A stretch of 20,274 bases of DNA, taken from assembly GCA_023424585.1 (NCBI GenBank), contig JAFADT010000942.1, positions 1 to 20,274 on the forward strand, given 5' to 3'. Shown one piece after another: positions 3,046 through 17,241 of this stretch; the first letter of the stretch is position 1; each line of letters begins with the position of its first letter. The position numbers and the translations under genes were made by a program. The notes beneath the pieces are model-generated. The model searched no databases. It was not told where the DNA came from and worked only from the letters and a program-made list of their open reading frames with translations. This DNA comes from Pseudomonadota bacterium (GTDB lineage: Bacteria; Myxococcota; Myxococcia; Myxococcales; Myxococcaceae).

Positions 3046-3909
3046 ATGCTGGGATCAGGTCGTGAGGTGACGCGGTGGACGTGGACGGCGCTGCTCTGGT
3101 GCGGCGCGTTGGGCTGCTCCGCGGAGCCGGCCATGGCGGTGGTGGTGGACGCGGGCGTGGTGGACCCGGGCCCGGACAGCCTGCCCTGTGACGTCCAGGC
3201 GGTGATCGCGGAGCGCTGCGCGTCCTGCCACGCGACGCCCGCGAAGGCGTTCGCCCCCATGGCGCTGCTGGCGCGCTCCGACTTCCAGCGGGCCTCGACG
3301 GTCGAGCCTCAGCGCAGCGTGGGGCAGCGCAGCCTGGCGCGGCTGGAGGACGCGGCGTCTCCGATGCCGCCGGCCTCCGAGCCGCCCATGCCGGAGGCGG
3401 AGCGGGCGCTGCTCACGGAGTGGCTGAAGGCGGGGATGCCCGCGGGGACCTGCGGCAGCCTCCCCGCCGGGCCCGCGCCGACGACGTGCGCGAGCGGGAG
3501 CTTCTGGTCCGAGGCGAGCGGCACCGGGGCCGCCATGGCGCCCGGCCTCGCCTGCCGGAGCTGCCACCTGGTGGAGGCGCCCCACGTGGCGTACTTCTTC
3601 ATGGGCACGGTGTTCCCGACGCTCCACGAGGCGGACGGGTGTGAGGCTCGGCTGCGGGAGCCGTCGAGCGTGAAGGTGGAGATCCTGGACATGGAGGACC
3701 AGGTGCGGCTCACGCTGGTGCCGAACTCCGCGGGCAACTTCACGTCCACGACGCTCCAGCCCTCCTTCCCCATGCCGTACCGGGCACGGCTGGTGGGGCC
3801 GGAGGGCACGTCGCGGAGGATGAGCACGCCGCAGAGCAACGGGGACTGCAACACCTGCCACACCGAGCAGGGCGCCCAGCACGCCCCGGGGCGCATCCAG
3901 CTGCCGTGA
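3046..3909 (+). CDS. Lipoprotein with three CXXCH haem-binding motifs (cytochrome c-like)
   Basis: A 287-residue envelope lipoprotein. The N-terminus has a basic stretch, a short hydrophobic core and a lipobox ending GALGC (C24). Three c-type haem motifs are visible: CASCH (58-62), CRSCH (170-174) and CNTCH (268-272). The first lies in a segment resembling small cytochrome c domains (AVIAERCASCH, later MPPASEPPMPEAERALLTEW, where methionines could serve as distal ligands). A beta-rich stretch without Cys fills about 205-260. The ATG at 3046 was chosen because it puts the lipobox at a normal distance; a GTG at 3067 would give an even more typical signal, and the frame is open further upstream. 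It is followed 94 bp later by the DUF1775 gene. An electron-transfer role is likely; partner and true haem number are unknown. Confidence 0.75.
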   Translation: MLGSGREVTRWTWTALLWCGALGCSAEPAMAVVVDAGVVDPGPDSLPCDVQAVIAERCASCHATPAKAFAPMALLARSDFQRASTVEPQRSVGQRSLARLEDAASPMPPASEPPMPEAERALLTEWLKAGMPAGTCGSLPAGPAPTTCASGSFWSEASGTGAAMAPGLACRSCHLVEAPHVAYFFMGTVFPTLHEADGCEARLREPSSVKVEILDMEDQVRLTLVPNSAGNFTSTTLQPSFPMPYRARLVGPEGTSRRMSTPQSNGDCNTCHTEQGAQHAPGRIQLP

Positions 3910-3925
3910 GGAGGGCTGACGCGGG

Positions 3926-3948
3926 CGCTGCGACAAATGACCGCAGCG
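3926..3948 (+). terminator. Putative hairpin terminator after the cytochrome gene
   Basis: CGCTGCG (3926-3932) and CGCAGCG (3942-3948) form a perfect 7-bp stem around a 9-nt loop, 17 bp past the cytochrome stop codon. Only two T follow, so Rho-independent function is uncertain, but it suggests partial separation from the next gene. Confidence 0.4.
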
Positions 3949-4003
3949 TTCGCTCCGCGGAGGGCTGATATCCGGGATGCTCCTTTCTTCCTGGAGTCAT
4001 CCG

Positions 4004-4720
4004 ATGAAGTCCTTCCTGAGGCCGCTGTGCGTCGTCGCGGGTTCGCTGCTGTCCTCCACCGTCTACGCGCACGCGGCGGTGTCGGGGGCCACGCCTCCGT
4101 ACGCGGGGGCGACCTTCGACGCGGACGTCACGGTGAGCCACGGCTGCGACGGCGCGGACACGTACCAGATGCGGGTCCAGCTTCCGGAGGGGGTGACGAA
4201 CGTGCGCCCGGTGGACTCGGTGTTCGGCAGGGCCGAGGTGGAGAAGGATGCCTCCGGCAACGTGACGGCGGTGACGTGGACGCGGACGGGGGAGGTGCGG
4301 GCGGCGGACACGCACTTCTTCCGCCTGGGGCTGCGCATGAAGCTGCCCTCGAGGCCGTTCACCACGCTGTTCTTCCCCACGACGCAGACGTGCCGCACGC
4401 CGGCGGGCGCGGAGTCGGTGGTGGAGTGGACGGGCACCGAGGGCGGGGAGCACGACCACGACGGGGACGCGGGCACGGCGCCCTCGGAGAACCCGGCGCC
4501 GTCGCTCTACCTGCTGCCCTCGCGGCTGCCGGGCTGGAACCAGTACACGGTGGAGGAGCACGTGCACGACCTGACCGTGTTCAAGGACGCGCTCATCGTC
4601 TGGTCCGGCGCGCAGGCGTACAGCTTCAACCCCGCCACGCAGGCGCTCATTGAGAAGGAGCCCGGCGTCACCGCGCTCACCCAGATCCACCCGGGCACGG
4701 TCATCTGGGTGAAGTACTAG
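4004..4720 (+). CDS. DUF1775 / YcnI-like periplasmic copper-binding protein with C-terminal extension
   Basis: A 238-residue exported protein. The signal peptide runs to VYA, so predicted cleavage leaves a histidine (H23) as the mature N-terminus (HAAV). Members of DUF1775 such as Bacillus YcnI use this N-terminal His, with a Glu and a Trp, to bind Cu(II). Family landmarks seen are SHGCDG (45-50), RVQLPEGV (57-64) and FPTTQTC (124-130) followed by VVEWTG, giving the candidate Trp W142. A His/Asp-rich patch EHDHDGD (149-155) follows. After about residue 170 there is an extension of about 65 residues (GWNQYTVEEHVHDL onward) with H186 and H188, beyond the usual domain; I do not recognise it. The start has GGAG 9 nt upstream. 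A tiny lipoprotein gene follows at 22 bp, and the MbnP-MbnH pair converges from the right, which suggests a copper role. Confidence 0.78.
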   Translation: MKSFLRPLCVVAGSLLSSTVYAHAAVSGATPPYAGATFDADVTVSHGCDGADTYQMRVQLPEGVTNVRPVDSVFGRAEVEKDASGNVTAVTWTRTGEVRAADTHFFRLGLRMKLPSRPFTTLFFPTTQTCRTPAGAESVVEWTGTEGGEHDHDGDAGTAPSENPAPSLYLLPSRLPGWNQYTVEEHVHDLTVFKDALIVWSGAQAYSFNPATQALIEKEPGVTALTQIHPGTVIWVKY

Positions 4721-4742
4721 GCCCGCACGGGAGACCGCGATC

Positions 4743-4943
4743 ATGCGCCACTGGCTCTTCGTGTTGTGTGTCGGCGTTCTCGCCGGCTGTTCGGACAAGC
4801 CCTCGTCTCCGCCCCCGGAGCAGACGGACGCGGGCGCTGTCGTGGAGGACGCGGGCACGGCGTCCGGGGTGGAGCGGCCGGGGGCGCTGGAGCGTCCGCC
4901 GCTGGAGCGGTTGCCGGACGACCTCAAGCCGCCCTCGCGGTAG
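4743..4943 (+). CDS. Small hypothetical lipoprotein (66 aa)
   Basis: The N-terminus MRHWLFVLCVGVLAGC is a textbook lipoprotein signal with the lipidated Cys at 16. The mature part of about 50 residues is Pro, Glu, Asp and Ala rich (PSSPPPEQTDAG, then RPPLERLPDD) with no fold-like hydrophobic pattern, so it is probably disordered. It starts 22 bp after the DUF1775 gene and is likely cotranscribed with it. I recognise no family. The signal peptide and position favour a real gene over chance. Confidence 0.65.
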   Translation: MRHWLFVLCVGVLAGCSDKPSSPPPEQTDAGAVVEDAGTASGVERPGALERPPLERLPDDLKPPSR

Positions 4944-5008
4944 GGCGGGCTTCAGGGGGCGCGGCGCTGCCCACCGCGCTCCAGGTCGGGCCCGTCTCGC
5001 GGCATGGG

Positions 5009-5035
5009 GTGGCCGGCTGGAGCCCCGCCGGCCAC
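5009..5035. terminator. Shared hairpin terminator between convergent units
   Basis: GTGGCCGGC (5009-5017) and GCCGGCCAC (5027-5035) form a perfect 9-bp stem with a 9-nt loop. It sits between the stop of the small lipoprotein gene and the stop of the di-heme gene arriving from the right. There is no T-run, as in many high-GC terminators. It could serve both directions. Confidence 0.6.
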
Positions 5036-5044
5036 GAGGCCGGC

Positions 5045-6187
5045 TCAGGGCGCGGTGGCCGGGTCCGCGAAGCGCGGGTCGGTCAGGAACGCCGTGTCCG
5101 TGAGCGACTCCAGGAACGCGATGACGTCCGCCTTCTCCTCGGGCGTCAGCTCGAAGCCGCGCACGAAGGCGCTCTGCAGGGGGCTTGGCTGTCCGCCGTT
5201 CGCGGCCGTCGCCCGGCCTCCCGCCGCGTAGTGGTCCAACACGTCGGAGAGCGTCGCCACGCTGCCGTCGTGCATGTACGGCGCGGTGACGGCCACGTTG
5301 CGCAGCGACGGCGCCTTGAAGCGCCCCATGTCCTCCGGGCGGCCCGTGAGCTCGATGAGGCCTGGATCCCCGAGCGGATAGGCGCCCTGGCCATCCTCGT
5401 TGTAGAGCCCCGTGTTGTGGTACGGCAGCACCGGCTCCGGCGTCTGCTCGTGCACGGTCGCGTCCTGGAAGTTGAAGCCGGAGTGGCAGTGGTCGCACTC
5501 CAGGCGCTCGGACAGGAACAGCTGCAGGCCCCGCTTCGCCGCGGGGCTCAGCGCGTCCACCTCCTTGCCGTACAGGTAGCGGTCATACGCGGACGTGCCC
5601 GACAGCAGGGACCGCTCGAACGCCGCCAGGGCCCGCGTCAGCGTGGCCAGCGACACCGGCGTGGCCTCGTTCGGGAACGCCTCCGCGAAGCGCGCCGCCA
5701 GGTCCGGATCCGCGCGCAGCCGCTCCAGCAACACCTCCTGGTCGTCCCCGAACCCCAGCTCCACCGGCTCGCGGCCGAACAGCGGCACCAGCGCCTGGGC
5801 CTCCAGCGAGGTGAGCGCGGAGTTGGCCCAGGTGAGGCTCGTCGCGTACGCCACGTTCGCCAGGCCCTGCGCGTTGCGGCGGTGCGCCTGGCCCGTGCTG
5901 CCCACCGCGTGCACGCGGCCGTCCGTGAAGGCCCGGGCCTGCTCATGGCAGGAGGCGCAGGACTGCGTGCCGTTCAGCGACAGGCGCTTGTCGTAGAAGA
6001 GGCGCCGGCCCAGCTGGACCTTCGCCTCCGACATGGGGTTGTCCTCCGGCACGCGCGGCGTGGGGAAGCCCGCCGGCAGCCTCCAGTCGTAGGGCGTGGA
6101 CTCCTCGGGGGGCCCCGAGGGATCCGCGCAGCCCGCGGCCAGCAGCGCCGCCGTCGCCAGCGCCTTCCACGCTCGTGCTCGTGCCAC
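5045..6187 (-). CDS. mbnH: Di-heme MauG/CcpA-like enzyme of the metallo-mystery pair (MbnH-like)
   Basis: A 380-residue di-heme enzyme of the bacterial cytochrome c peroxidase/MauG superfamily. MbnH-type members are known to form a high-valent bis-Fe(IV) state and oxidise a Trp of the partner MbnP to kynurenine, enabling copper binding. Seen: lipoprotein signal ending LLAAGC (C20), haem motif CASCH (77-81), haem motif CDHCH (231-235) and the superfamily segment PYMHDGSVATL (303-313). The length fits the family. The start is a GTG at 6187 with GGAGA 8 nt upstream; it begins 12 bp after the mbnP stop, so the two are surely cotranscribed. The adjacent partner gene distinguishes it from an ordinary peroxidase. 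The family is also known as the MXAN_0977 type. Peroxidase activity alone remains an alternative. Confidence 0.88.
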   Translation of the reverse strand: MARARAWKALATAALLAAGCADPSGPPEESTPYDWRLPAGFPTPRVPEDNPMSEAKVQLGRRLFYDKRLSLNGTQSCASCHEQARAFTDGRVHAVGSTGQAHRRNAQGLANVAYATSLTWANSALTSLEAQALVPLFGREPVELGFGDDQEVLLERLRADPDLAARFAEAFPNEATPVSLATLTRALAAFERSLLSGTSAYDRYLYGKEVDALSPAAKRGLQLFLSERLECDHCHSGFNFQDATVHEQTPEPVLPYHNTGLYNEDGQGAYPLGDPGLIELTGRPEDMGRFKAPSLRNVAVTAPYMHDGSVATLSDVLDHYAAGGRATAANGGQPSPLQSAFVRGFELTPEEKADVIAFLESLTDTAFLTDPRFADPATAP

Positions 6188-6199
6188 GTCGGACGTCTC

Positions 6200-7075
6200 C
6201 TATTCGGCCCGGATGAAGGTCTGCGCGGCAGGGTCCGCCGCCTGGCTGCCGAAGCCCAGGCCCAGGCGCTGGAAGAGGGGACCGCAGTCCGCGTCGGTGG
6301 GCGACGACATGCAGCCCGAGGCCGTGCTGGGGGCGTTCGCGTCCAGGTCGGAGCCCGCGAAGAGCGCGCCCAGGTCCATCACCACGCGGCCCTTCGTCAC
6401 GTCGAAGCCCTCCAGGTGGAACTCCGGACGGTTGGGGTTGTCGCACCCGGCGGTGCCCTGCGTCTGGCCCTCGGGCGGCGGCGCGCAGGACGTGCTGCCC
6501 AGGTGCAGGACGTGCTGGGGCAGGCCCTGCGTCCGGCCCTCGATGTGGGCGAAGACGAAGCCGCTCTGCCAGCTCCAGTGCAGGCTCATGTCCCCCAGCG
6601 GGGCGCCCAGCGTCGTCGGGTCGCCGTGGTTCAGGTCCTCCGGCACGCCCAGCGTGAAGCGCAGGCCCGTGTAGTCACCCTGGGGCACCGTGCCCCGGAT
6701 GGACGCGTTCATGCCCGCCGTGCCCTGCGTGCACAGGCCGTCCTTGTTCGCGAAGTCCAGGAGCACCACGCCCGAGTGCTGCCACGTGCCGTCCTCGGTC
6801 AGCGTCACGGGCACCTCCTGCCCGCCCCGCGTCACCAGCCGCACGTCGTGCACGTACACCCGGAAGTCCATGGGCTCGTAGGTCGTCCCCGTCGTCCCGA
6901 CGTTCGTGTACGTCTGGCCGCACGCGAACGGCTCCGCGCCCACGCGGGCGACGACGGGGAGGTCCACCGTCAGCACCTCGGGCGTCTGGGGTTCGTCCTC
7001 CCCACAGCCGAGCGCGCCCACGAGGGCCAGCGGGAGGAGGAGGCGGGAGCGGAGCAGGGTGCGCATGGGTTTCAT
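6200..7075 (-). CDS. mbnP: MbnP-like copper-binding lipoprotein (metallo-mystery pair four-Cys motif family)
   Basis: A 291-residue lipoprotein partner of the di-heme enzyme. MbnP proteins bind copper after one Trp is converted to kynurenine. Seen: signal peptide with lipobox GALGC (C24); six further cysteines at 52, 115, 197, 211, 255 and 264; family segments FRVYVHDVRLV (71-81), LLDFANKDGLC (105-115), GVPEDLNH (143-150) and MSLHWSWQSGF (163-173). The W167/W169 pair and W98 are the only tryptophans, so the modified residue should be one of them; W167 or W169 is my guess from their place in the conserved segment. ATG 7075 has GGAGG 12 nt upstream; an in-frame ATG at 7066 with AAGG 9 nt upstream is equally possible. 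The family is also called the MXAN_0976 type. Exact copper ligands are not assigned here. Confidence 0.9.
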   Translation of the reverse strand: MKPMRTLLRSRLLLPLALVGALGCGEDEPQTPEVLTVDLPVVARVGAEPFACGQTYTNVGTTGTTYEPMDFRVYVHDVRLVTRGGQEVPVTLTEDGTWQHSGVVLLDFANKDGLCTQGTAGMNASIRGTVPQGDYTGLRFTLGVPEDLNHGDPTTLGAPLGDMSLHWSWQSGFVFAHIEGRTQGLPQHVLHLGSTSCAPPPEGQTQGTAGCDNPNRPEFHLEGFDVTKGRVVMDLGALFAGSDLDANAPSTASGCMSSPTDADCGPLFQRLGLGFGSQAADPAAQTFIRAE

Positions 7076-7150: not shown

Positions 7151-10100
7151 TCACGCCACCTCGCGCGCTTCGTCCGGGGCCGGGAGCCCCGCGCCCCGCG
7201 CCTTGCGCCGCTGGATGGCCAGGAAGAGGGCCTCGTGCGTGGCGGGCGAGGGCAGCGCCACGTCGCCGCCCGGCGCTCCGAAGGCGGCCACCGCGTCGCG
7301 CAGCGCCTCGCGCACGGACAGGGCCAGCATCAGCGGCGGCTCGCCCACGGCCTTGCTGCCGTGGATGGTGCCCTGCTGCCCGGCCCGCTCCACGAACGCC
7401 ACGCGCAGGTCGATGGGCGCGTCGCTGAAGGCGGGCACCGCGTAGGTGCTGGCGGAGTGCGTGAGCAGCCGGCCGCTCGCGTCCCACTTCAGCTCCTCGC
7501 CGGTGAGCCACCCCATGCCCTGCACGAAGCCGCCCTCCACCTGGCCCCGGTCCACGCCGGGGTTGAGTGAGTCACCCACGTCCTCCAGCAGGTCCGAGCG
7601 CAGCACGCGCTTCATGCCCGTGTCGCCGTCCACCTCCACCTCGCTCACCGCCGCGCCGTAGGCGAAGTAGAGGAACGGCCTGCCCCGGCCCTTCTCCCGG
7701 TCGTAGCCGATGCCCGGCGTGCGGTAGTAGCCCGTGACGGACAGGCCCACGCGGTCGCGGTAGGCCTCCTCCACCACCGCCGCGAAGTCCAGCCCCTGGT
7801 CCGGCCGCGCCGCCGCCGCGATGCGCCCGCCCGCGAACACCAGCGCGTCCGGCGACACCGCCTGGCCGTGCAACTGCACCAGCATCCGCGCGGCCACCGG
7901 GGCCAGCCGCTCGCGCACCTGGATGCAGGCCTCGCGCACCGCCGCGCCGTTGAGGTCCGAGCCGCTGGAGGCCGCCGTCGCGGACGTGTTGGGCACCTTG
8001 TCCGTGGCCGTCTGCGCCACGCGCACCAGCTCCGCGGGCAGGCCCAGCTCGCGCATCGCCACGCCTTGAATCTTGGTGTGCAGCCCCTGGCCCATCTCCG
8101 TGCCGCCGTGCGACAGCAGCACGGAGCCGTCGCGGTACACGTGCACCAGCGCGCCCGCCTGGTTGAGGAAGGTGGCGGTGAAGGAGATGCCGAACTTCAT
8201 GGGCGTGATGGCCAGGCCGCGCTTGATGCGGGGGCTGGCCGCGTTGAAGGCAGCCACCTCCGCGCGGCGCCTCGCGAAGTCGGAGGACTCCAGGAGGTCG
8301 CTCCACAGCTTCGGCAGCCGGTTGTCCTCCAGCTCCTGGCCGTAGTGCGTGGTGTTCGTCTCGCCCACGCCGTCGTAGAGGTTGCGCTGGCGCACGGCCT
8401 CGGGCGCCAGGCCCAGGGTGCTCGCGATGCGCGCCAGGATGTCCTCCATCACCAGCATGCCCTGGGGGCCCCCGAAGCCGCGGAACGCCGTGTTGGACAC
8501 CAGGTGCGTCTTCGCCACGCGGCCGGAGTAGCGCACCGCCGGCACGTAGTAGCCGTTGTCCAGGTGGAAGAGGGCGCGGTCGGTGATGGACTCGGACAGG
8601 TCCAGGGACCAGCCGCCGTTGGACGTGAGGTCCGCCTTGAGCGCGAGCAGCCGCCCCGTGGCGTCGAAGCCCACCTCCCAGGCCGCGTGGAACGGGTGGC
8701 GCTTGCCCGTGACGACCATGTCCACGTCGCGGTCCAGCATCCACTTCACCGGCCGGCCCGTGTGCACCGCCGCCAGCGCCACCAGCGCCGCGGGCGCGTT
8801 GCCCTGCGTCTCCTTGCCGCCGAAGCCGCCGCCCATGCGCGGCGCCTTCACCACCACGCGGCTCCGGGGCAGGTGCAGCACGTGCGAGAGGATGGCCTGC
8901 ACCTCCGACGGGTGCTGCGTGGAGGACGTCACCGTGACGTCGCCGTCCTCGCCCACCTCCGCGAAGGCCGCGTGCGTCTCCAGGTAGAAGTGCTCCTGGC
9001 CGCCCAGGGTCAGCTCGCCGGACAGCCGGTTCGGGCTGGAGGCGAGCGCGCTGTCCACGTCGCCCCGGCGGATGACGTGCGGGTCGGTGTGGAAGCTGCC
9101 CTGCGCGAGGGCCTCGGCCAGCGTGAGCACCGCGGGCAGGGGCTCGTAGTCCACCACCACCTGCCGGGCGCCCTCGCGGCAGGCCTCGGGCGTCTCGCCG
9201 ACGACGAGCGCCACCACCTGCGAGTGGAAGCGCACCTCCTCCTTCGCGAGCAGCGGCTCGTCGTGGCGGATGGGGCCCGTGTCGTTCATGCCCGGGATGT
9301 CCTCGGCGAGCAGCACCTTCACCACGCCGGGCACCTTCAGCGCGGCGCTGGCGTCGCGGCGGAGGATGCGCGCGTGCGCGTGCGGCGACAGCACCGGCCA
9401 CACCGTCAGCATGGGGCGGCGCTGCGCGAGGTCGTCCACGTACTGCGCGCTGCCCGTCACGTGGCCCAGCGCGCTCTCATGGCGCAGCTCGCGGCCGGCG
9501 TCCGCCGTGGCGGAGGGCGCGCCCGGGGCGAACCGGGGGCGTCCGTCCAGCACGCGGCTGCGCGCGCCGGAGGCGAACTTCTCCAGCAGCGACACCACCA
9601 GCCCGCGGCGGTAGTCCGCGCTGCCGCGCAGGTCCGTGAGGGGCGTGAACTCGCGCTCCAGCGTGGCGCGCACGCGTTCCACGGCCTCCGCGTTCCACGG
9701 GTGGCCCACGAGCAGGGCCTCCGTCTGCCTCGCTCGCGACGGGGTGGCCGCGACGCCGCCGTAGCCCAGCCGCGCGGTGCGCACGACGCCCTGCGCGTCC
9801 GTCTCGATGCAGAAGCCCGCCGCGACGATGCTGATGTCCAGCTCGCGGCGCTTGGACACCTTGAAGCTGTCCGAGTGGCGCGTCAGCCCGCTGTCCTTCG
9901 CCGGGGCGTGGGGGATGACGATGAAGCGGACGACCTCGTCCGGCTGGAGCGCCGTCTTGCGGTAGGCGAGGAAGAAGTCCGACAGCGCCACCGTCCGCTC
10001 GCCGCGCGCGGACGCGAGCACCAGCCGCGCGTCCAGCGCCAGCAGCACCGGCGCCGTGTCCCCGATGGGCGACGCCGTCACCAGGTTGCCCGCCAGCGTG

Positions 10101-10984
10101 GCGCGTTGACGGATCTGCCGCGAGGCGAAGACGTTGAGCATCTTCGCCAGCTCCGGCACCTCGTGGCCCAGCGCGTCCTCCACGTCCACCAGCGACGCGG
10201 CGCCGCCCACGTACCAGCCGTCCTCCTCGCGGCGGATGGCGCGCAGGGCCTCCACGCCCTCGGTCGAGATGAGGAACGGGTAGCGGCGGGCCTTCTTGGT
10301 GATGTCCACGCCCAGCTCGGTGGCGCCGGCCACGAGCATCGCCTCCGGGTGCAGGGCGCGCAGCGCGAGCAGGTCCTCCCAGGTGGTGGGGCGCAGGAAC
10401 AGCCCGTCGCGGGCCTCGTAGCGCAGGGGCGGGGTGGGGGAGGGCGGCCCCTCCAGCGAGACGCAGGGCAGTCCGGGGCCGGCGCCCTTCGCGTCGCGGA
10501 GGGCGAGCGCGTCCATCATCGCGTCGCGGATGGGGCGGTAGCCGGTACAGCGGCAGATGTTGCCGCAGAGCTGATCCGCCACCGCCTCCGGCGAGCCCGC
10601 GTCCCTGCGACAGTAGGCCTCCACCATGGAGACGACGAAGCCCGGCGTGCAGAAGCCGCACTGCGAGCCGTAGTGCTTCACCATCGCCTGCTGGACGGGG
10701 TGCGGCGCGGCGCGGCTGCCCACGCCCTCCACGGTGATGAGCTCGCGCCCGGCCACCATGGGCACCAGCGCGATGCAGCTGTTGAACGCGCGCAACGTCC
10801 TCTGCCCGCGCGTGTCCCGGTCCACCATCGCCACGGTGCACGCGCCGCAGTCGCCCTCGGCGCAGCCCTGCTTCGTGCCCGTCAACCCGCGCGCGCGCAG
10901 GTAGTCCAGCAGGGTGGTGTTGGACGACGCGTCGTCCACGCGGACCGGCTGTCCGTTGAGCCGGAACTCGAAGGGGGTGCTCAT
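7151..10984 (-). CDS. xdh: Single-chain xanthine dehydrogenase (2x[2Fe-2S]-FAD-molybdopterin)
   Basis: A 1277-residue cytoplasmic molybdo-flavoenzyme that oxidises hypoxanthine and xanthine to urate. Cluster I cysteines are C41, C46, C49 and C70; cluster II cysteines are C109, C112, C144 and C146 (CRC). The FAD domain spans roughly 195-475. The molybdenum domain spans about 500-1277, with GGGFGGKET (718-726; E725 matches bovine E802), SITDRALFHLDN (R803 matches R880), NTAFRGFGGPQ (F837 matches F914), EMGQGLHTK and VGEPPL (E1215 matches catalytic E1261). Conservation of both Glu and the Arg argues for true xanthine specificity. Most bacteria split this into XdhA and XdhB; here the frame is continuous across the junction, as in eukaryotes. 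The ATG overlaps the xdhC stop codon in an ATGA, so the two are translationally coupled. Confidence 0.95.
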   Translation of the reverse strand: MSTPFEFRLNGQPVRVDDASSNTTLLDYLRARGLTGTKQGCAEGDCGACTVAMVDRDTRGQRTLRAFNSCIALVPMVAGRELITVEGVGSRAAPHPVQQAMVKHYGSQCGFCTPGFVVSMVEAYCRRDAGSPEAVADQLCGNICRCTGYRPIRDAMMDALALRDAKGAGPGLPCVSLEGPPSPTPPLRYEARDGLFLRPTTWEDLLALRALHPEAMLVAGATELGVDITKKARRYPFLISTEGVEALRAIRREEDGWYVGGAASLVDVEDALGHEVPELAKMLNVFASRQIRQRATLAGNLVTASPIGDTAPVLLALDARLVLASARGERTVALSDFFLAYRKTALQPDEVVRFIVIPHAPAKDSGLTRHSDSFKVSKRRELDISIVAAGFCIETDAQGVVRTARLGYGGVAATPSRARQTEALLVGHPWNAEAVERVRATLEREFTPLTDLRGSADYRRGLVVSLLEKFASGARSRVLDGRPRFAPGAPSATADAGRELRHESALGHVTGSAQYVDDLAQRRPMLTVWPVLSPHAHARILRRDASAALKVPGVVKVLLAEDIPGMNDTGPIRHDEPLLAKEEVRFHSQVVALVVGETPEACREGARQVVVDYEPLPAVLTLAEALAQGSFHTDPHVIRRGDVDSALASSPNRLSGELTLGGQEHFYLETHAAFAEVGEDGDVTVTSSTQHPSEVQAILSHVLHLPRSRVVVKAPRMGGGFGGKETQGNAPAALVALAAVHTGRPVKWMLDRDVDMVVTGKRHPFHAAWEVGFDATGRLLALKADLTSNGGWSLDLSESITDRALFHLDNGYYVPAVRYSGRVAKTHLVSNTAFRGFGGPQGMLVMEDILARIASTLGLAPEAVRQRNLYDGVGETNTTHYGQELEDNRLPKLWSDLLESSDFARRRAEVAAFNAASPRIKRGLAITPMKFGISFTATFLNQAGALVHVYRDGSVLLSHGGTEMGQGLHTKIQGVAMRELGLPAELVRVAQTATDKVPNTSATAASSGSDLNGAAVREACIQVRERLAPVAARMLVQLHGQAVSPDALVFAGGRIAAAARPDQGLDFAAVVEEAYRDRVGLSVTGYYRTPGIGYDREKGRGRPFLYFAYGAAVSEVEVDGDTGMKRVLRSDLLEDVGDSLNPGVDRGQVEGGFVQGMGWLTGEELKWDASGRLLTHSASTYAVPAFSDAPIDLRVAFVERAGQQGTIHGSKAVGEPPLMLALSVREALRDAVAAFGAPGGDVALPSPATHEALFLAIQRRKARGAGLPAPDEAREVA

Positions 10985-12485: not shown

Positions 12486-12923
12486 ATGGCGAACACGGAC
12501 ATCGAGACGCTGAACTCCTTCCTGCGCGGTGAGCTGTCCGCCGTGGAGACCTACCGGCAGGCGAGCAAGCACATGAAGAGCGACATCGCCCGGACCGAGG
12601 TGGATGCCTGCCTCCATGACCACGAGGCCCGCGTCGACGCGCTCAAGGAGCGCATCGAGAAGCTGGGCGGCAGCCCGGCGGAGAGCTCCGGCGTCTGGGG
12701 GGCCTTCGCGAAGATCGTCCAGGGCGGGGCCGACCTGCTGGGGGAGAAGGCCGCCATCGACGCGCTGGAGCAGGGCGAGGACCACGGCCTGGCGGACTAC
12801 AACCGCGACGTGGCCAAGCTCCACGGCGAGGCGCGCAGCTTCGCGCGTCAGCAGCTCCTGCCGGCCCAGAAGCAGACGCATGATCGGCTCAGCCGCCTGA
12901 AGCACAATCCCACCCTGCACTGA
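12486..12923 (+). CDS. DUF2383-type ferritin-like four-helix protein
   Basis: A 145-residue soluble, fully helical protein. Acidic and histidine residues placed as in ferritin-like bundles are seen in GELSAVETY (E16, E21), CLHDHEARVD (H44, H46, E47) and ALEQGEDHGLADY (E95, E98, H100). The overall pattern matches DUF2383 (PA2169-type) proteins, which are often stress-related; a metal site is an inference. AAGGAG lies 8 nt before the ATG. It stands 172 bp from the preceding gene and is followed by a strong terminator, so it is probably monocistronic. No cofactor role is proven for this family. Confidence 0.72.
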   Translation: MANTDIETLNSFLRGELSAVETYRQASKHMKSDIARTEVDACLHDHEARVDALKERIEKLGGSPAESSGVWGAFAKIVQGGADLLGEKAAIDALEQGEDHGLADYNRDVAKLHGEARSFARQQLLPAQKQTHDRLSRLKHNPTLH

Positions 12924-13937: not shown

Positions 13938-15032
13938 TCAGGGCTCGGTGAGGATGCGGTGCCGGTACAGCTCCAGGAGGATGTCCGGATCCAGGTCCGC
14001 CTGCCGGTGGTCGCGCAGGTGCTGGCGGACGGCCTCCACGGGCTTCTGGCCGGTGAACTCCACCAGCAGCGCGTAGGCCTCGCCGGGCAGCGCCACCGCG
14101 TCGTATTCGCTGTACGAGCCCAGCGCCACGCTGCCGTCCGGCAGCCACTTCACCGTGGCGTCCGGGTTGAAGCGCAGGACGCGCGGCAGCGAGGGCGCGG
14201 TGGCGCTCGTGTGCAGCTTCTCCAGCACCTTCTGCTCGATGGTGCCGTCCAGGCCCAGCATCCGCTCCAGCCCGTCCCGGGACACGGCGCGCACGGCGTC
14301 GTAGCAGGCGCGGTAGAAGTCCTTCTCCAGCCCGGCGTACCCCTGCCAGAGCGCGGCGTACGCCTTCGCCGGGGGCGCCGCGTCGTCCAGGTCCTCCACG
14401 GACAGCGGGCCGCTGGCCACCTCCGCCTTGTCGCGGCCCTCCAGGAGGAACTCCGGCATCAGGTGGAGCAGCGCGTGGCGCGACAGCTGGAACTCCGCCA
14501 GCGTCAGGTACGTCTTGAGCGACATCCAGAAGCGCTGGCCGTCGCGGCCCGCCACGTACTTGCAGAAGAACGTGGAGCAGACGGACTCGCGGTACGCCCA
14601 GATGGTGCAGCCGCCGGACTCCAGCGCGTAGTACGGGCAGCGCAGCGACGACGCGCGGCCGAAGAACTGGTGCGCGTTCTTGTAGAGGTGGTTGAACTTC
14701 GCCGGCGGCTTCACCCACTGCGGGCTCACGCCGATGCGGCTGTCGATCTTCGCCTCGATGCGCCGGCGCCCCTCCGCCATCTGCGGCGAGTCATCCGACA
14801 GGAGCGCGCCCACGAGGTAGTTGGGCAGCCGGGGCTGGTACGTGCAGCACTTGGTGTCCGGCCGGAACAGGTGCTCCGCCCCGTCCACCGAATCCACCGT
14901 GGCCCGCGCGGAGGCGCGGCTCATGGCGCAGTTCGAGCAGGTGGCCTTCGTCTCCGTGGGCGCGTCCTTCTGGAAGAAGGCCGGCAGGAGGTCCTGGTAG
15001 AGGGCGGGCAGCGTCGAGAGGATGGAGGACAT
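13938..15032 (-). CDS. YkgJ-like Cys-cluster protein with long C-terminal domain
   Basis: A 364-residue cytoplasmic protein. Eight cysteines fall in the N-terminal half: CSNC (32-35), CC (62-63), C132, C142, C152 and C157. The segment CPYYALESGGCTIWAYRESVC then FFC resembles the second half of YkgJ/CxxCxxCC proteins, which bind iron or zinc. In that family the first block is a compact CxxCxxCC; here 26 residues separate CxxC from CC, so the metal site is split. Residues about 165-364 are helical and then mixed, with no recognised domain. The ATG is preceded by a pyrimidine-rich stretch and no Shine-Dalgarno, and lies 12 bp after the stop of a 58-codon gene, so it may depend on coupling. The YkgJ link is moderate; function unknown. 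Confidence 0.7.
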   Translation of the reverse strand: MSSILSTLPALYQDLLPAFFQKDAPTETKATCSNCAMSRASARATVDSVDGAEHLFRPDTKCCTYQPRLPNYLVGALLSDDSPQMAEGRRRIEAKIDSRIGVSPQWVKPPAKFNHLYKNAHQFFGRASSLRCPYYALESGGCTIWAYRESVCSTFFCKYVAGRDGQRFWMSLKTYLTLAEFQLSRHALLHLMPEFLLEGRDKAEVASGPLSVEDLDDAAPPAKAYAALWQGYAGLEKDFYRACYDAVRAVSRDGLERMLGLDGTIEQKVLEKLHTSATAPSLPRVLRFNPDATVKWLPDGSVALGSYSEYDAVALPGEAYALLVEFTGQKPVEAVRQHLRDHRQADLDPDILLELYRHRILTEP

Positions 15033-15351: not shown

Positions 15352-17241
15352 TCAGTAGTGCACGGACAGGCTCACGCCGCTGTAGGCCGTGTAGCCCCAG
15401 AGCATGATCCACTGCCGGCCGGCGGTGGACTGCGCCCCCAGGCTGCACGTCTCGTTGTTGCCTCCCATGTAGGGACGGCAGGAGTACGTCGTCGCGGTGG
15501 GCGCGGCGCCAAAGCGCGTGTAGAGGTCCACGTCCCCGGTGCCGCTGGAGAGGGTCACCGTGGAGGGCGTGTTCGCCGGCACGTCGAAGCAGAAGTACTG
15601 CTTCGAGTTGGCCGCGCCGGAGAGCAGGGACACCGTGGTGTTGTTGGGCAGCAGGGTGCACGCGGGCGCCGGCGTCACCGCGCCCACGCCCACCGCCATC
15701 CACGCCGCGTCCACCGCGTCCTGGACGTCGGTGCGGTAGCCCAGGTTCACCGCCGCCTGCCGCGTCGCCGTCTTCGCCGCGGCCAGGGTGGTGCTGGCCG
15801 TGAAGAGGTGGGCGTTGGCGTAATAGAAGATGCGGGCCGCGGCCTGCACGCCGATGCCCGGCACGCTCACCGTCGTCTTGCCGCGCGGGTGCGTGCCGCC
15901 GGTGGACAGCAGCTTGAACGCGAGGTTGGGCACGCCGGAGCCGGAGTGGACGTCCGTGGCGCTCGTCACGTCCGGGGCGTAGTCCAGCGAGGCGCCGTCC
16001 GCGGCGGGGTCGTTCATGTAGCGCAGGGCGTCCCCGGGCGTGCTCGGCGTCCAGGCCGTCTCGCCAATCTGCCAGACGGACGCCGCGGTGCTCCAGGTGC
16101 CCGTCGCCCAGCTGGAGCAGGCGGCGGCGAAGATGTCCGACAGGGACTCGTTCAACGCGCCGGACTGGCCGCTGTAGGTGAGGTTGGACGTGCTCTCCGT
16201 GACGGCGTGCGTGTACTCGTGCACGACGATGTCCGGGTCCTCGCAGGGCGGCCCGGACTGGGGCAGGTTGCCGTCGTCGCACACCAGCTTCGTGCCGTCG
16301 AAGTACGCGTTCGCGGACTGGCCGCCGGCGTGCACCTGCGCCACCAGCTGGCCGCCCGAGCCGTTGTACGAGTCGCGGTTGAAGTTCGCGAGGAAGCAAT
16401 CGTAGAACAGGCCCAGGTGGCCGTACGTCGTGTCGATGCCGGTGTCCCCCGTGGGCAGCTGGCCCTCCATCCGGCACCAGCCGTGGGTCGCGCCGCCCAC
16501 GGAGCACACCTTGCGGTTGCGCGCGGTGTGGATCTCCGGCGCGCGCAGCACCTCGTGGCCGTCCTCCGCGCTCACGTAGACGCGGTCGCGCAGCGGCAGG
16601 CCGTCCGAGTGCTGGCCGGACACCACCACCTCGAAGGCGCGGACCAGGGCCGCCTCCGGCGCCGGGCGGACGAGCACCTCCCGGACGGACTCCGCGATGC
16701 CACCGGCGGTCGCCGCCAGCGCCGCCTCGCTCGCGGCCTCCGCGCTGATGCGAGCCGCGACCGGCAGGGGCTCGCCCCCGCGCGCGGTGCCGTTCACCGC
16801 GTACACCTGGCCCCGCGCGTCCACGTGGACGATGAGCTCCTCGTTCACCACCGGCAGGCCGCCCAGGGTCTGCGCGTAGCGCAGGTGCGTGTGGCCCAGC
16901 TCGTCCCGCTGGACGCGCAAGGGCACCACGTCCTTCGTCGTCAGCCGGAAGGCGGGCAGCACGCGCTGGAGGGTGGGCTCCAGGAGCGCGTGCGCCTGCC
17001 AGGCGCTGGCGCCGGGAATGGGCCGGCCCGTCGTGCCCAGCGCGCCCTGGATGAACTGGGGCACGCCGTCCTCGTGCACCCCCAGCACCTCCGCGCCGGG
17101 CAGCGCCCCCAGCGCGGCCTGGAGGTCGCCCAGGCGGGCCTCGGAGCGGGCGGAGGGCGCCTCGGCCTCGGGGCCGCCCGCACCACATGCGGACAGCGTG
17201 AACGTCAGGCCGGCGAGGAGCCAGCGGTTCTTTCGCGTCAT
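15352..17241 (-). CDS. M4 (thermolysin) family metalloprotease lipoprotein with PPC domain
   Basis: A 629-residue secreted zinc endopeptidase. Order: lipoprotein-type signal ending LSACG (C19); an N-terminal propeptide (about 35-235) of the fungalysin/thermolysin-propeptide and PepSY type, with [17 protein letters not shown] (122-138); the peptidase domain with HEYTH (341-345, catalytic E342), third zinc ligand E365 in ALNESLSD and catalytic H432 in [10 protein letters not shown]; and a C-terminal pre-peptidase beta domain (about 535-629, DVDLYTRFG). All catalytic residues are intact. Such enzymes mature by removing the propeptide; here the lipid anchor would stay with the propeptide, so the mature enzyme could be released. 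The ATG at 17241 follows GGGG 8-10 nt upstream. It is divergent from purL. A role in prey or protein digestion is an inference. Confidence 0.93.

What the first reader, a model, noticed from the sequence alone, without database searches (positions are those of the whole stretch)
3046..7075. Envelope copper/redox module: MbnP-MbnH pair convergent with a DUF1775 protein and a multi-haem lipoprotein
Seen: mbnP and mbnH in tandem (12 bp apart), facing a unit of CXXCH lipoprotein, DUF1775 protein and mini-lipoprotein, with a shared terminator between. Known: MbnH makes kynurenine in MbnP, creating a copper site, and DUF1775/YcnI binds Cu(II) through its N-terminal His. Inference: these five genes form one copper-handling system in which the three-CXXCH lipoprotein may supply or drain electrons for the di-heme enzyme. 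Four of five carry lipoboxes, so chemistry would occur on a membrane face. The coupling of a His-brace protein with a kynurenine-forming pair is the best candidate for an undescribed system here.
Basis: partly seen in the sequence, partly recalled or inferred. Interest (0 to 1): 0.72.

Follow-up and report, generated by a model that had tools for sequence, protein, structure and literature searches.

The report
Copper-protein genes with haem partner
A soil bacterium carries, side by side, two sets of genes for handling copper on its outer layers, and relatives show that a small haem protein belongs with these copper proteins, sometimes even fused to one of them, which points to an overlooked electron-carrying part of this copper system.

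Summary
The five genes are real. MbnH (TIGR04039) and MbnP (TIGR04052) score far over their cut-offs. DUF1775 is a YcnI-fold protein with an N-terminal His and a C-terminal extension. The CXXCH lipoprotein has three haem motifs, but only its C-terminal two-haem domain is constant. The "shared terminator" is not supported.

The convergent layout is a Corallococcus-type feature: in 14 of 16 such genomes the units lie within 10 kb (the other two have them on different contigs); 4 of 14 are tight. The link recurs in other layouts: MbnP–MbnH–DUF1775 in two other Myxococcaceae, DUF1775–lipoprotein–MbnH in another, and same-strand rows in a Comamonadaceae MAG and Agitococcus. A shared copper role is likely, but not wholly undescribed: a 2022 paper lists YcnI and MbnPH-like genes among copper-responsive operons.

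What seems new: (1) relatives of the two-haem domain lie between mbnP and mbnH in at least 9 of 93 Myxococcota MbnP loci, also in Polyangium and Nannocystis, and are fused to MbnP in 10 proteins; (2) a tiny lipoprotein follows DUF1775 in about 45 of 50 Myxococcota loci; (3) the trio exists in a genome without MbnP, so it is separable. I favour a Cu(II)/Cu(I) electron relay. No biochemistry was tested.

The parts
3046..3909 (+). c-type cytochrome lipoprotein: N-terminal one-haem cytochrome c domain plus C-terminal two-haem domain ('P1C' here)
   Evidence: three CXXCH; Cytochrom_C 25.2 bits, residues 51-128; C-domain family
4004..4720 (+). DUF1775 (YcnI-type) protein, His23 after the signal peptide (cleavage read by eye), with ~70-residue C-terminal extension
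4743..4943 (+). 66-aa mini-lipoprotein ending in a ..RPP..LP..LKPP.. motif, near-constant neighbour of DUF1775 in Myxococcota
5045..6187 (-). mbnH, di-haem enzyme of the MauG/bCcP superfamily
6200..7075 (-). mbnP, copper protein with WxW (W164, W166 in the numbering of A1 row 1) whose first Trp is the predicted kynurenine

Best explanation
This is an envelope copper-handling neighbourhood made of two units that evolve separately but repeatedly come together. Unit 1 (mbnP-mbnH): MbnH oxidises the first Trp of the WxW motif of MbnP to kynurenine, which lets MbnP hold Cu(I) (known for the family, recalled; inferred here). Unit 2 (haem lipoprotein, C-extended DUF1775, mini-lipoprotein): DUF1775 holds Cu(II) through its N-terminal His (inferred from homology and fold), the mini-lipoprotein is its partner or membrane anchor (inferred from linkage), and the two-haem lipoprotein is an electron carrier. 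My preferred mechanism is that the two-haem domain supplies electrons for the Cu(II)-to-Cu(I) step between a Cu(II)-type holder (DUF1775) and a Cu(I)-type holder (MbnP), all on membrane faces. Shown: gene identities, recurrent linkage, related cytochromes between mbnP and mbnH, and fusion to MbnP. Inferred: direction of electron flow, copper transfer, co-regulation.
Against: 33 of 50 DUF1775 loci have no MbnH in the stretch fetched. Of the 16 genus-g1 loci, 3 lack the haem lipoprotein (L054, L055, L074) and one (L069) is cut by a contig end. Only 2 of 79 wider MbnH loci have DUF1775, and in one of them, L194, MbnP lies in two reading frames. The window's cytochrome is only remotely related (20-30% identity) to the one between mbnP and mbnH. 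The family is large (502 relatives, 120 listed), and of 80 matches, 57 lie neither at mbnP-mbnH nor beside DUF1775. The profile scored three one-haem cytochromes (5.8e-5 to 1.6e-4) as well as the two-haem proteins (4.7e-5, 1.5e-4). The fusion search could not return proteins under about 267 aa, so 'ten of ten fused' is partly built in. In 10 of 14 genus-g1 genomes other genes stand between the units. Redox potentials, haem ligands and copper states are unknown; the cytochrome's AlphaFold model was poor (pLDDT 54).
Confidence: 0.5

Rival explanations
1. The haem lipoprotein serves MbnH: it brings the di-haem enzyme to its active mixed-valence state or drains/supplies electrons during Trp-to-Kyn oxidation.
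For: A family member lies between mbnP and mbnH in at least 9 of 93 over-cut-off MbnP loci of the phylum survey and in L170 and L197. bCcP-type enzymes generally need pre-reduction (recalled).
Against: In the ten proteins the domain is fused to MbnP; no fusion to MbnH was listed, though its length would have been allowed. It pairs with DUF1775 in G002, which has no MbnP match and no MbnH over the cut-off. The window gene is in the other transcription unit.
Confidence: 0.25
2. Two independent copper units that happen to be neighbours by synteny in one genus; no joint function.
For: Tight convergence was seen only in the window's genus, and 10 of 14 same-contig genomes have genes between the units. 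33 of 50 DUF1775 loci lack MbnH nearby.
Against: Re-associations in other layouts: G147, G186, G178, L194, L199. Chance of lying within 10 kb in a ~10 Mb genome is about 0.2-0.6% per genome (my arithmetic). 47 of 50 DUF1775 genomes also have MbnP, against 33 of 143 others (confounded by ancestry).
Confidence: 0.2
3. The C-terminal two-haem domain is a sensor or structural anchor rather than an electron relay, and the cytochrome is linked to general respiration.
For: Large paralogous family; 57 of 80 matches lie away from both copper places, and one search gives 502 relatives.
Against: The subfamily closest to A7 was found only between mbnP and mbnH in the 193 genomes, though A7 was built from those copies; fusion to MbnP.
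Confidence: 0.05

Closest known systems
MbnP-MbnH pair (TIGR04052/TIGR04039, GenProp0940; PMC3621798, passages read)
   Same: Both window genes score over the curated cut-offs, tandem pair, WxW motif; solved relatives 7l6g (named 'Metallo-mystery pair system four-Cys motif protein') and 6e1c found by sequence
   Different: Faces a DUF1775 unit; relatives add a two-haem domain between the genes or fused to MbnP. Methanobactin genes were not searched for
YcnI/DUF1775 of Bacillus subtilis (PMC8424229, passages read; PMC12154828, abstract read)
   Different: No Glu near the Glu50 position in the 15 aligned sequences, where His46-Gly47 is invariant; a ~70-residue C-terminal extension. YcnJ and YcnK neighbours were not searched for
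CruR (DUF2946) copper-responsive operons (PMC9426467, section 10 and passages read)
   Same: That paper lists YcnI, PCuAC, ScoC, CopC and MbnPH-like genes among CruR-headed operons, so the gene repertoire overlaps
   Different: No DUF2946 in 9 of 9 Myxococcota genomes tested; the parts I read mention neither a two-haem lipoprotein nor the mini-lipoprotein
MopE/CorA with SACCP/CorB (PMC3912023 abstract, PMC3621798 passages)
   Same: Kynurenine copper(I) site with a di-haem enzyme as gene partner
   [quoted passage not shown] not tested here

Membership tests
MbnP (TIGR04052) | score over curated cut-off (140 bits) | tested here: met
   271.6 bits
MbnP (TIGR04052) | conserved WxW motif and cysteines | tested here: met
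   W164, W166, C112, C194, C208, C252, C261 invariant in the 20 rows of A1; WxW in 130 of 130 hits over 150 bits
MbnP (TIGR04052) | first Trp converted to kynurenine; Cu(I) bound | not testable with these tools
   needs mass spectrometry and metal analysis; known for M. trichosporium MbnP (recalled; the PNAS paper was not held)
MbnH (TIGR04039) | score over curated cut-off (362.85 bits), two CXXCH | tested here: met
   504.7 bits; CASCH and CDHCH in the translation
MbnH (TIGR04039) | adjacent to mbnP | tested here: met
   12 bp apart
DUF1775 / YcnI copper-binding domain | Pfam domain over cut-off and YcnI fold | tested here: met
DUF1775 / YcnI copper-binding domain | N-terminal His after signal peptide and conserved Trp | tested here: met
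   script found the AxAH pattern in 51 of 53 and I read it by eye in the other two (window, L060); Trp by a loose pattern in 53 of 53; W142 and H46 invariant in the 15 rows of A3; no signal-peptide program was run
DUF1775 / YcnI copper-binding domain | Glu50 ligand | tested here: inconclusive
   His46-Gly47 stands at or beside it, judged by the alignment to 3esm; PMC8424229 describes a class with only His and Trp kept, and His plus Trp in about 95% (passages)
CruR-type copper operon | DUF2946 upstream gene | tested here: not met
   0 of 9 related genomes have PF11162; the window's own genome is not held
two-haem (P1C) family | G..C..CH ... GT ... GNF ... M ... G.CN.CH framework | tested here: met
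   invariant columns of A4 (9 rows, window first)

The most novel reading that the evidence does not exclude
Kynurenine-type copper proteins in Myxococcota have a third, so far unnamed component: a dedicated two-haem cytochrome (sometimes covalently fused to MbnP) that switches copper between Cu(II), held by C-extended DUF1775 with its mini-lipoprotein, and Cu(I), held by MbnP. A bolder corollary, not excluded, is that MbnH can also act on DUF1775's invariant Trp next to its copper site: in G178 a complete MbnH stands in a DUF1775-mini-lipoprotein-MbnH row with no MbnP beside it (I give this corollary about 0.05).
Probability: 0.35. Interest if true: 0.7.

Novelty: new variant of a known kind. 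Interest (0 to 1): 0.5.

Why it matters
How bacteria use MbnP-MbnH outside methanobactin systems is open. A genetically linked, sometimes fused cytochrome gives a concrete candidate for the redox step of these copper sites, and named strains (Corallococcus, Enhygromyxa salina, Paraliomyxa miuraensis, Polyangium, Nannocystis) in which to test it. It also singles out a tiny lipoprotein as the near-constant partner of C-extended DUF1775.

Tried and rejected
Rejected: a shared terminator. Rejected: CruR-type regulation, no DUF2946 in 9 of 9 related genomes. Not usable: the haem lipoprotein's AlphaFold model, mean pLDDT 54, so it was not searched for folds. The DUF1775 C-terminal extension was not folded alone; that the structural matches span only residues 19-173 says nothing about its fold. 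An automatic count of cytochrome genes in mbnP-mbnH operons was spoiled because MbnH itself was counted in most rows; its total is not used. Read by eye it adds one-haem genes in L122 and L200 and unclear ones in L160 and L215. Searches scanned the mini-lipoprotein out of frame; redone as P0006 with nothing over a cut-off. An alignment of one-haem cytochromes was made and not used further. Literature: searches listed no paper that I could recognise as describing a cytochrome fused to or between MbnP and MbnH; one search found 55 papers with the word MbnP, of which 30 were listed, nearly all with unrelated meanings. The 2021 PNAS paper on MbnP, which as I recall includes a neighbourhood analysis, is not held, so I cannot say that this is unreported there. 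Mentions of M. xanthus MXAN_0976/0977 gave no function.
Full report
What is there. Five genes occupy 3046-7075. On the + strand: a haem lipoprotein 3046-3909 with three CXXCH, a DUF1775 protein 4004-4720 and a 66-residue lipoprotein 4743-4943. On the - strand: MbnP 6200-7075 and MbnH 5045-6187, 12 bp apart. MbnH scores 504.7 bits against TIGR04039 (cut-off 362.85) and MbnP 271.6 bits against TIGR04052 (cut-off 140). Four of the five match a lipobox pattern. The claimed shared terminator has no support: z -0.41 and no terminator-like site in the gap. A haem lipoprotein 99% identical to the window's is on record for Corallococcus sp. RDP092CA, and the next relatives are also from Corallococcus, so the window is most likely Corallococcus; its own assembly is not held.

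Survey of the phylum. In 193 Myxococcota genomes MbnP occurs in 80 (93 loci over the cut-off, counted by me from the listing), DUF1775 in 50, and MbnH over the cut-off in 80. 47 of the 50 DUF1775 genomes also have MbnP, against 33 of the other 143; many of these belong to one family, so ancestry confounds this. In the window's genus (g1 in the tool's labels) 16 genomes have both. In 14 they lie on one contig within 10 kb; in G075 and G123 they lie on different contigs. Only G092, G094, G118 and G148 are as tight as the window; the other ten carry genes in between (one such 321-aa protein has no Pfam match at E 0.01).

Other layouts. I fetched the neighbourhoods of all 50 DUF1775 genes, up to about 9 kb each side and less at contig ends. 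MbnH lies in 17 of 50 and MbnP in 16 of 50. Outside the genus these are G147 and G186 (barrel-like protein - lipoprotein - MbnP - MbnH - DUF1775 - one-haem lipoprotein - TonB receptor - HmuY, with HemS and a periplasmic binding protein checked in G147; 'barrel-like' is by eye) and G178 (DUF1775 - mini-lipoprotein - MbnH without MbnP). On the DUF1775 tree the label 'MbnH within 10 kb' needs 7 changes; two of these come from G075 and G123, whose contigs are split. The two Myxococcaceae groups that carry it fall in separate, supported clades. The window's own genus counts as one event.

Beyond the phylum. A scan of one genome per species with an MbnH alignment gave 79 loci, among them Myxococcota and short contigs. 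With my own profiles, DUF1775 is on the same strand within 10 kb in 2 of 79. One is a Comamonadaceae MAG with PCuAC - PCuAC - a 403-aa protein - DUF1775 - MbnP - MbnH, its MbnP lying in two reading frames. The other is Agitococcus lubricus with MbnP - MbnH - a 373-aa protein - DUF1775 (PCuAC by Pfam). Both DUF1775 proteins carry the C-terminal extension seen here. This agrees with a 2022 report that operons headed by the copper-responsive CruR gene contain YcnI, PCuAC, ScoC, CopC and MbnPH-like genes (PMC9426467; section 10 and passages read). So a shared copper role is likely, and it is not wholly undescribed. DUF2946 itself was absent from the 9 Myxococcota genomes I tested.

The haem lipoprotein. 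Its C-terminal two-haem domain (residues about 139-287) is the constant part: six relatives in the genus and G002 match over that part. In L128 and L129 a two-haem lipoprotein gene stands between mbnP and mbnH. From I picked seven more genomes by their gap of about 700 bp between the two genes, plus two with a normal gap: all seven hold such a gene there and the two others do not. So the figure is at least 9 of 93 loci. Homology to the window protein: a first profile scored these proteins at 4.7e-5 and 1.5e-4, but three one-haem cytochromes scored alike. A profile-profile comparison gives 97.5% probability, E 6e-12, 107 columns, 24% identity, while controls against MbnH, which also carries CXXCH, give 11.9% over 30 columns and 48% over 14 columns.

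A search of the 193 genomes with the profile of this second group, which was built from those same nine copies and three others, gave 80 matches in 58 genomes. The nine source copies are the only strong ones (E 7e-76 or better, the next at 1e-13); G122 keeps a short piece between its mbnP and mbnH; 13 matches lie beside DUF1775; the other 57 lie at neither place and were not examined. Among the 79 wider loci the gene also lies between mbnP and mbnH in Polyangium sp. y55x31 and Nannocystis sp. RBIL2, and in Paraliomyxa miuraensis it is part of one reading frame with MbnP. A protein search with that part gave 10 proteins of 480-502 residues, the query included, all with MbnP's Pfam domain, one of them from Enhygromyxa salina; proteins under about 267 residues could not be returned (two sequences read). 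The window-type form is beside DUF1775 in 15 of 50 loci. Against a copper-only role, the family is large (502 relatives, 120 listed).

The small lipoprotein. A script that asked for a lipobox and a P..LP motif printed a candidate right after DUF1775 in 46 of 50 loci; one of them (L085) looks false, and in the broken G047 locus it starts farther away; the rest are 56-75 residues long and start within about 26 bases. It has no match over a cut-off in Pfam or NCBIfam. In G002, from another family, the order two-haem lipoprotein - DUF1775 - mini-lipoprotein is that of the window, yet G002 has no MbnP match and no MbnH over the cut-off. So the trio can stand alone.

Limits. Nothing here shows copper binding, kynurenine, expression or electron flow. 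Loci were annotated with a simple GC-based gene caller and with six-frame profiles of my own making. The survey drew 193 genomes, and the first look of some searches scored only the best 10-19 candidates per genome, so absences are soft.

Noticed in passing
L114, L119, L121, L123, L124, L125, L134 (and L173, which looks like the same contig as L119): A second, divergent MbnP-like/MbnH-like pair stands convergent to the canonical pair. The MbnP-like protein keeps a WMW motif but has only 1-2 Cys in its frame; two of its MbnH-like partners were scored, at 228 and 211 bits, under the TIGR04039 cut-off. It may be a separate kynurenine-type family.
   Followed up: partly
L059, L062 (4727-16317 in L059): MbnP-MbnH-DUF1775 sits upstream of haem-uptake genes (TonB receptor, HmuY, HemS/ChuX, periplasmic binding protein; Pfam checked in L059 only) in two genomes.
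   Followed up: partly
L100, L107, L110-L112, L135, L178, L185, L191; L077: A barrel-like protein (by eye) and/or a lipoprotein (clusters c18, c19) lie beside MbnP-MbnH in several distant lineages, and beside DUF1775 in L077; the L059 lipoprotein has no Pfam or NCBIfam match.
   Followed up: partly
L073 9916-11022: A complete MbnH next to DUF1775 and the mini-lipoprotein without any MbnP match in the stretch; the genome has another MbnP-cytochrome-MbnH set elsewhere.
   Followed up: partly
L049, L050, L052, L054, L063, L068 between MbnH and DUF1775: Variable genes of unknown kind stand between the two units in many Corallococcus-type genomes.
   Followed up: no
L064 (7939-8553), L079, L086, L089: SCO1/SenC lies near DUF1775 in 12 of 50 loci, three of them in genus g1, often with a YtkA-like protein, again a copper context.
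   Followed up: partly
L173, L190, L211 record titles: Titles such as Comamonas sp. KCTC 72670, Bifidobacterium breve MAG and Bordetella parapertussis MAG look doubtful; L173's contig length equals that of contig C2 of the Myxococcaceae genome G074.
   Followed up: no
window 15352-17241 -, 12486-12923 +, 13938-15032 -: Neighbours: an M4 thermolysin-type peptidase, a DUF2383 protein, and a protein with only a weak CxxCxxCC match; a large - strand frame 7151-10984 reads like a xanthine dehydrogenase (by eye).
   Followed up: no
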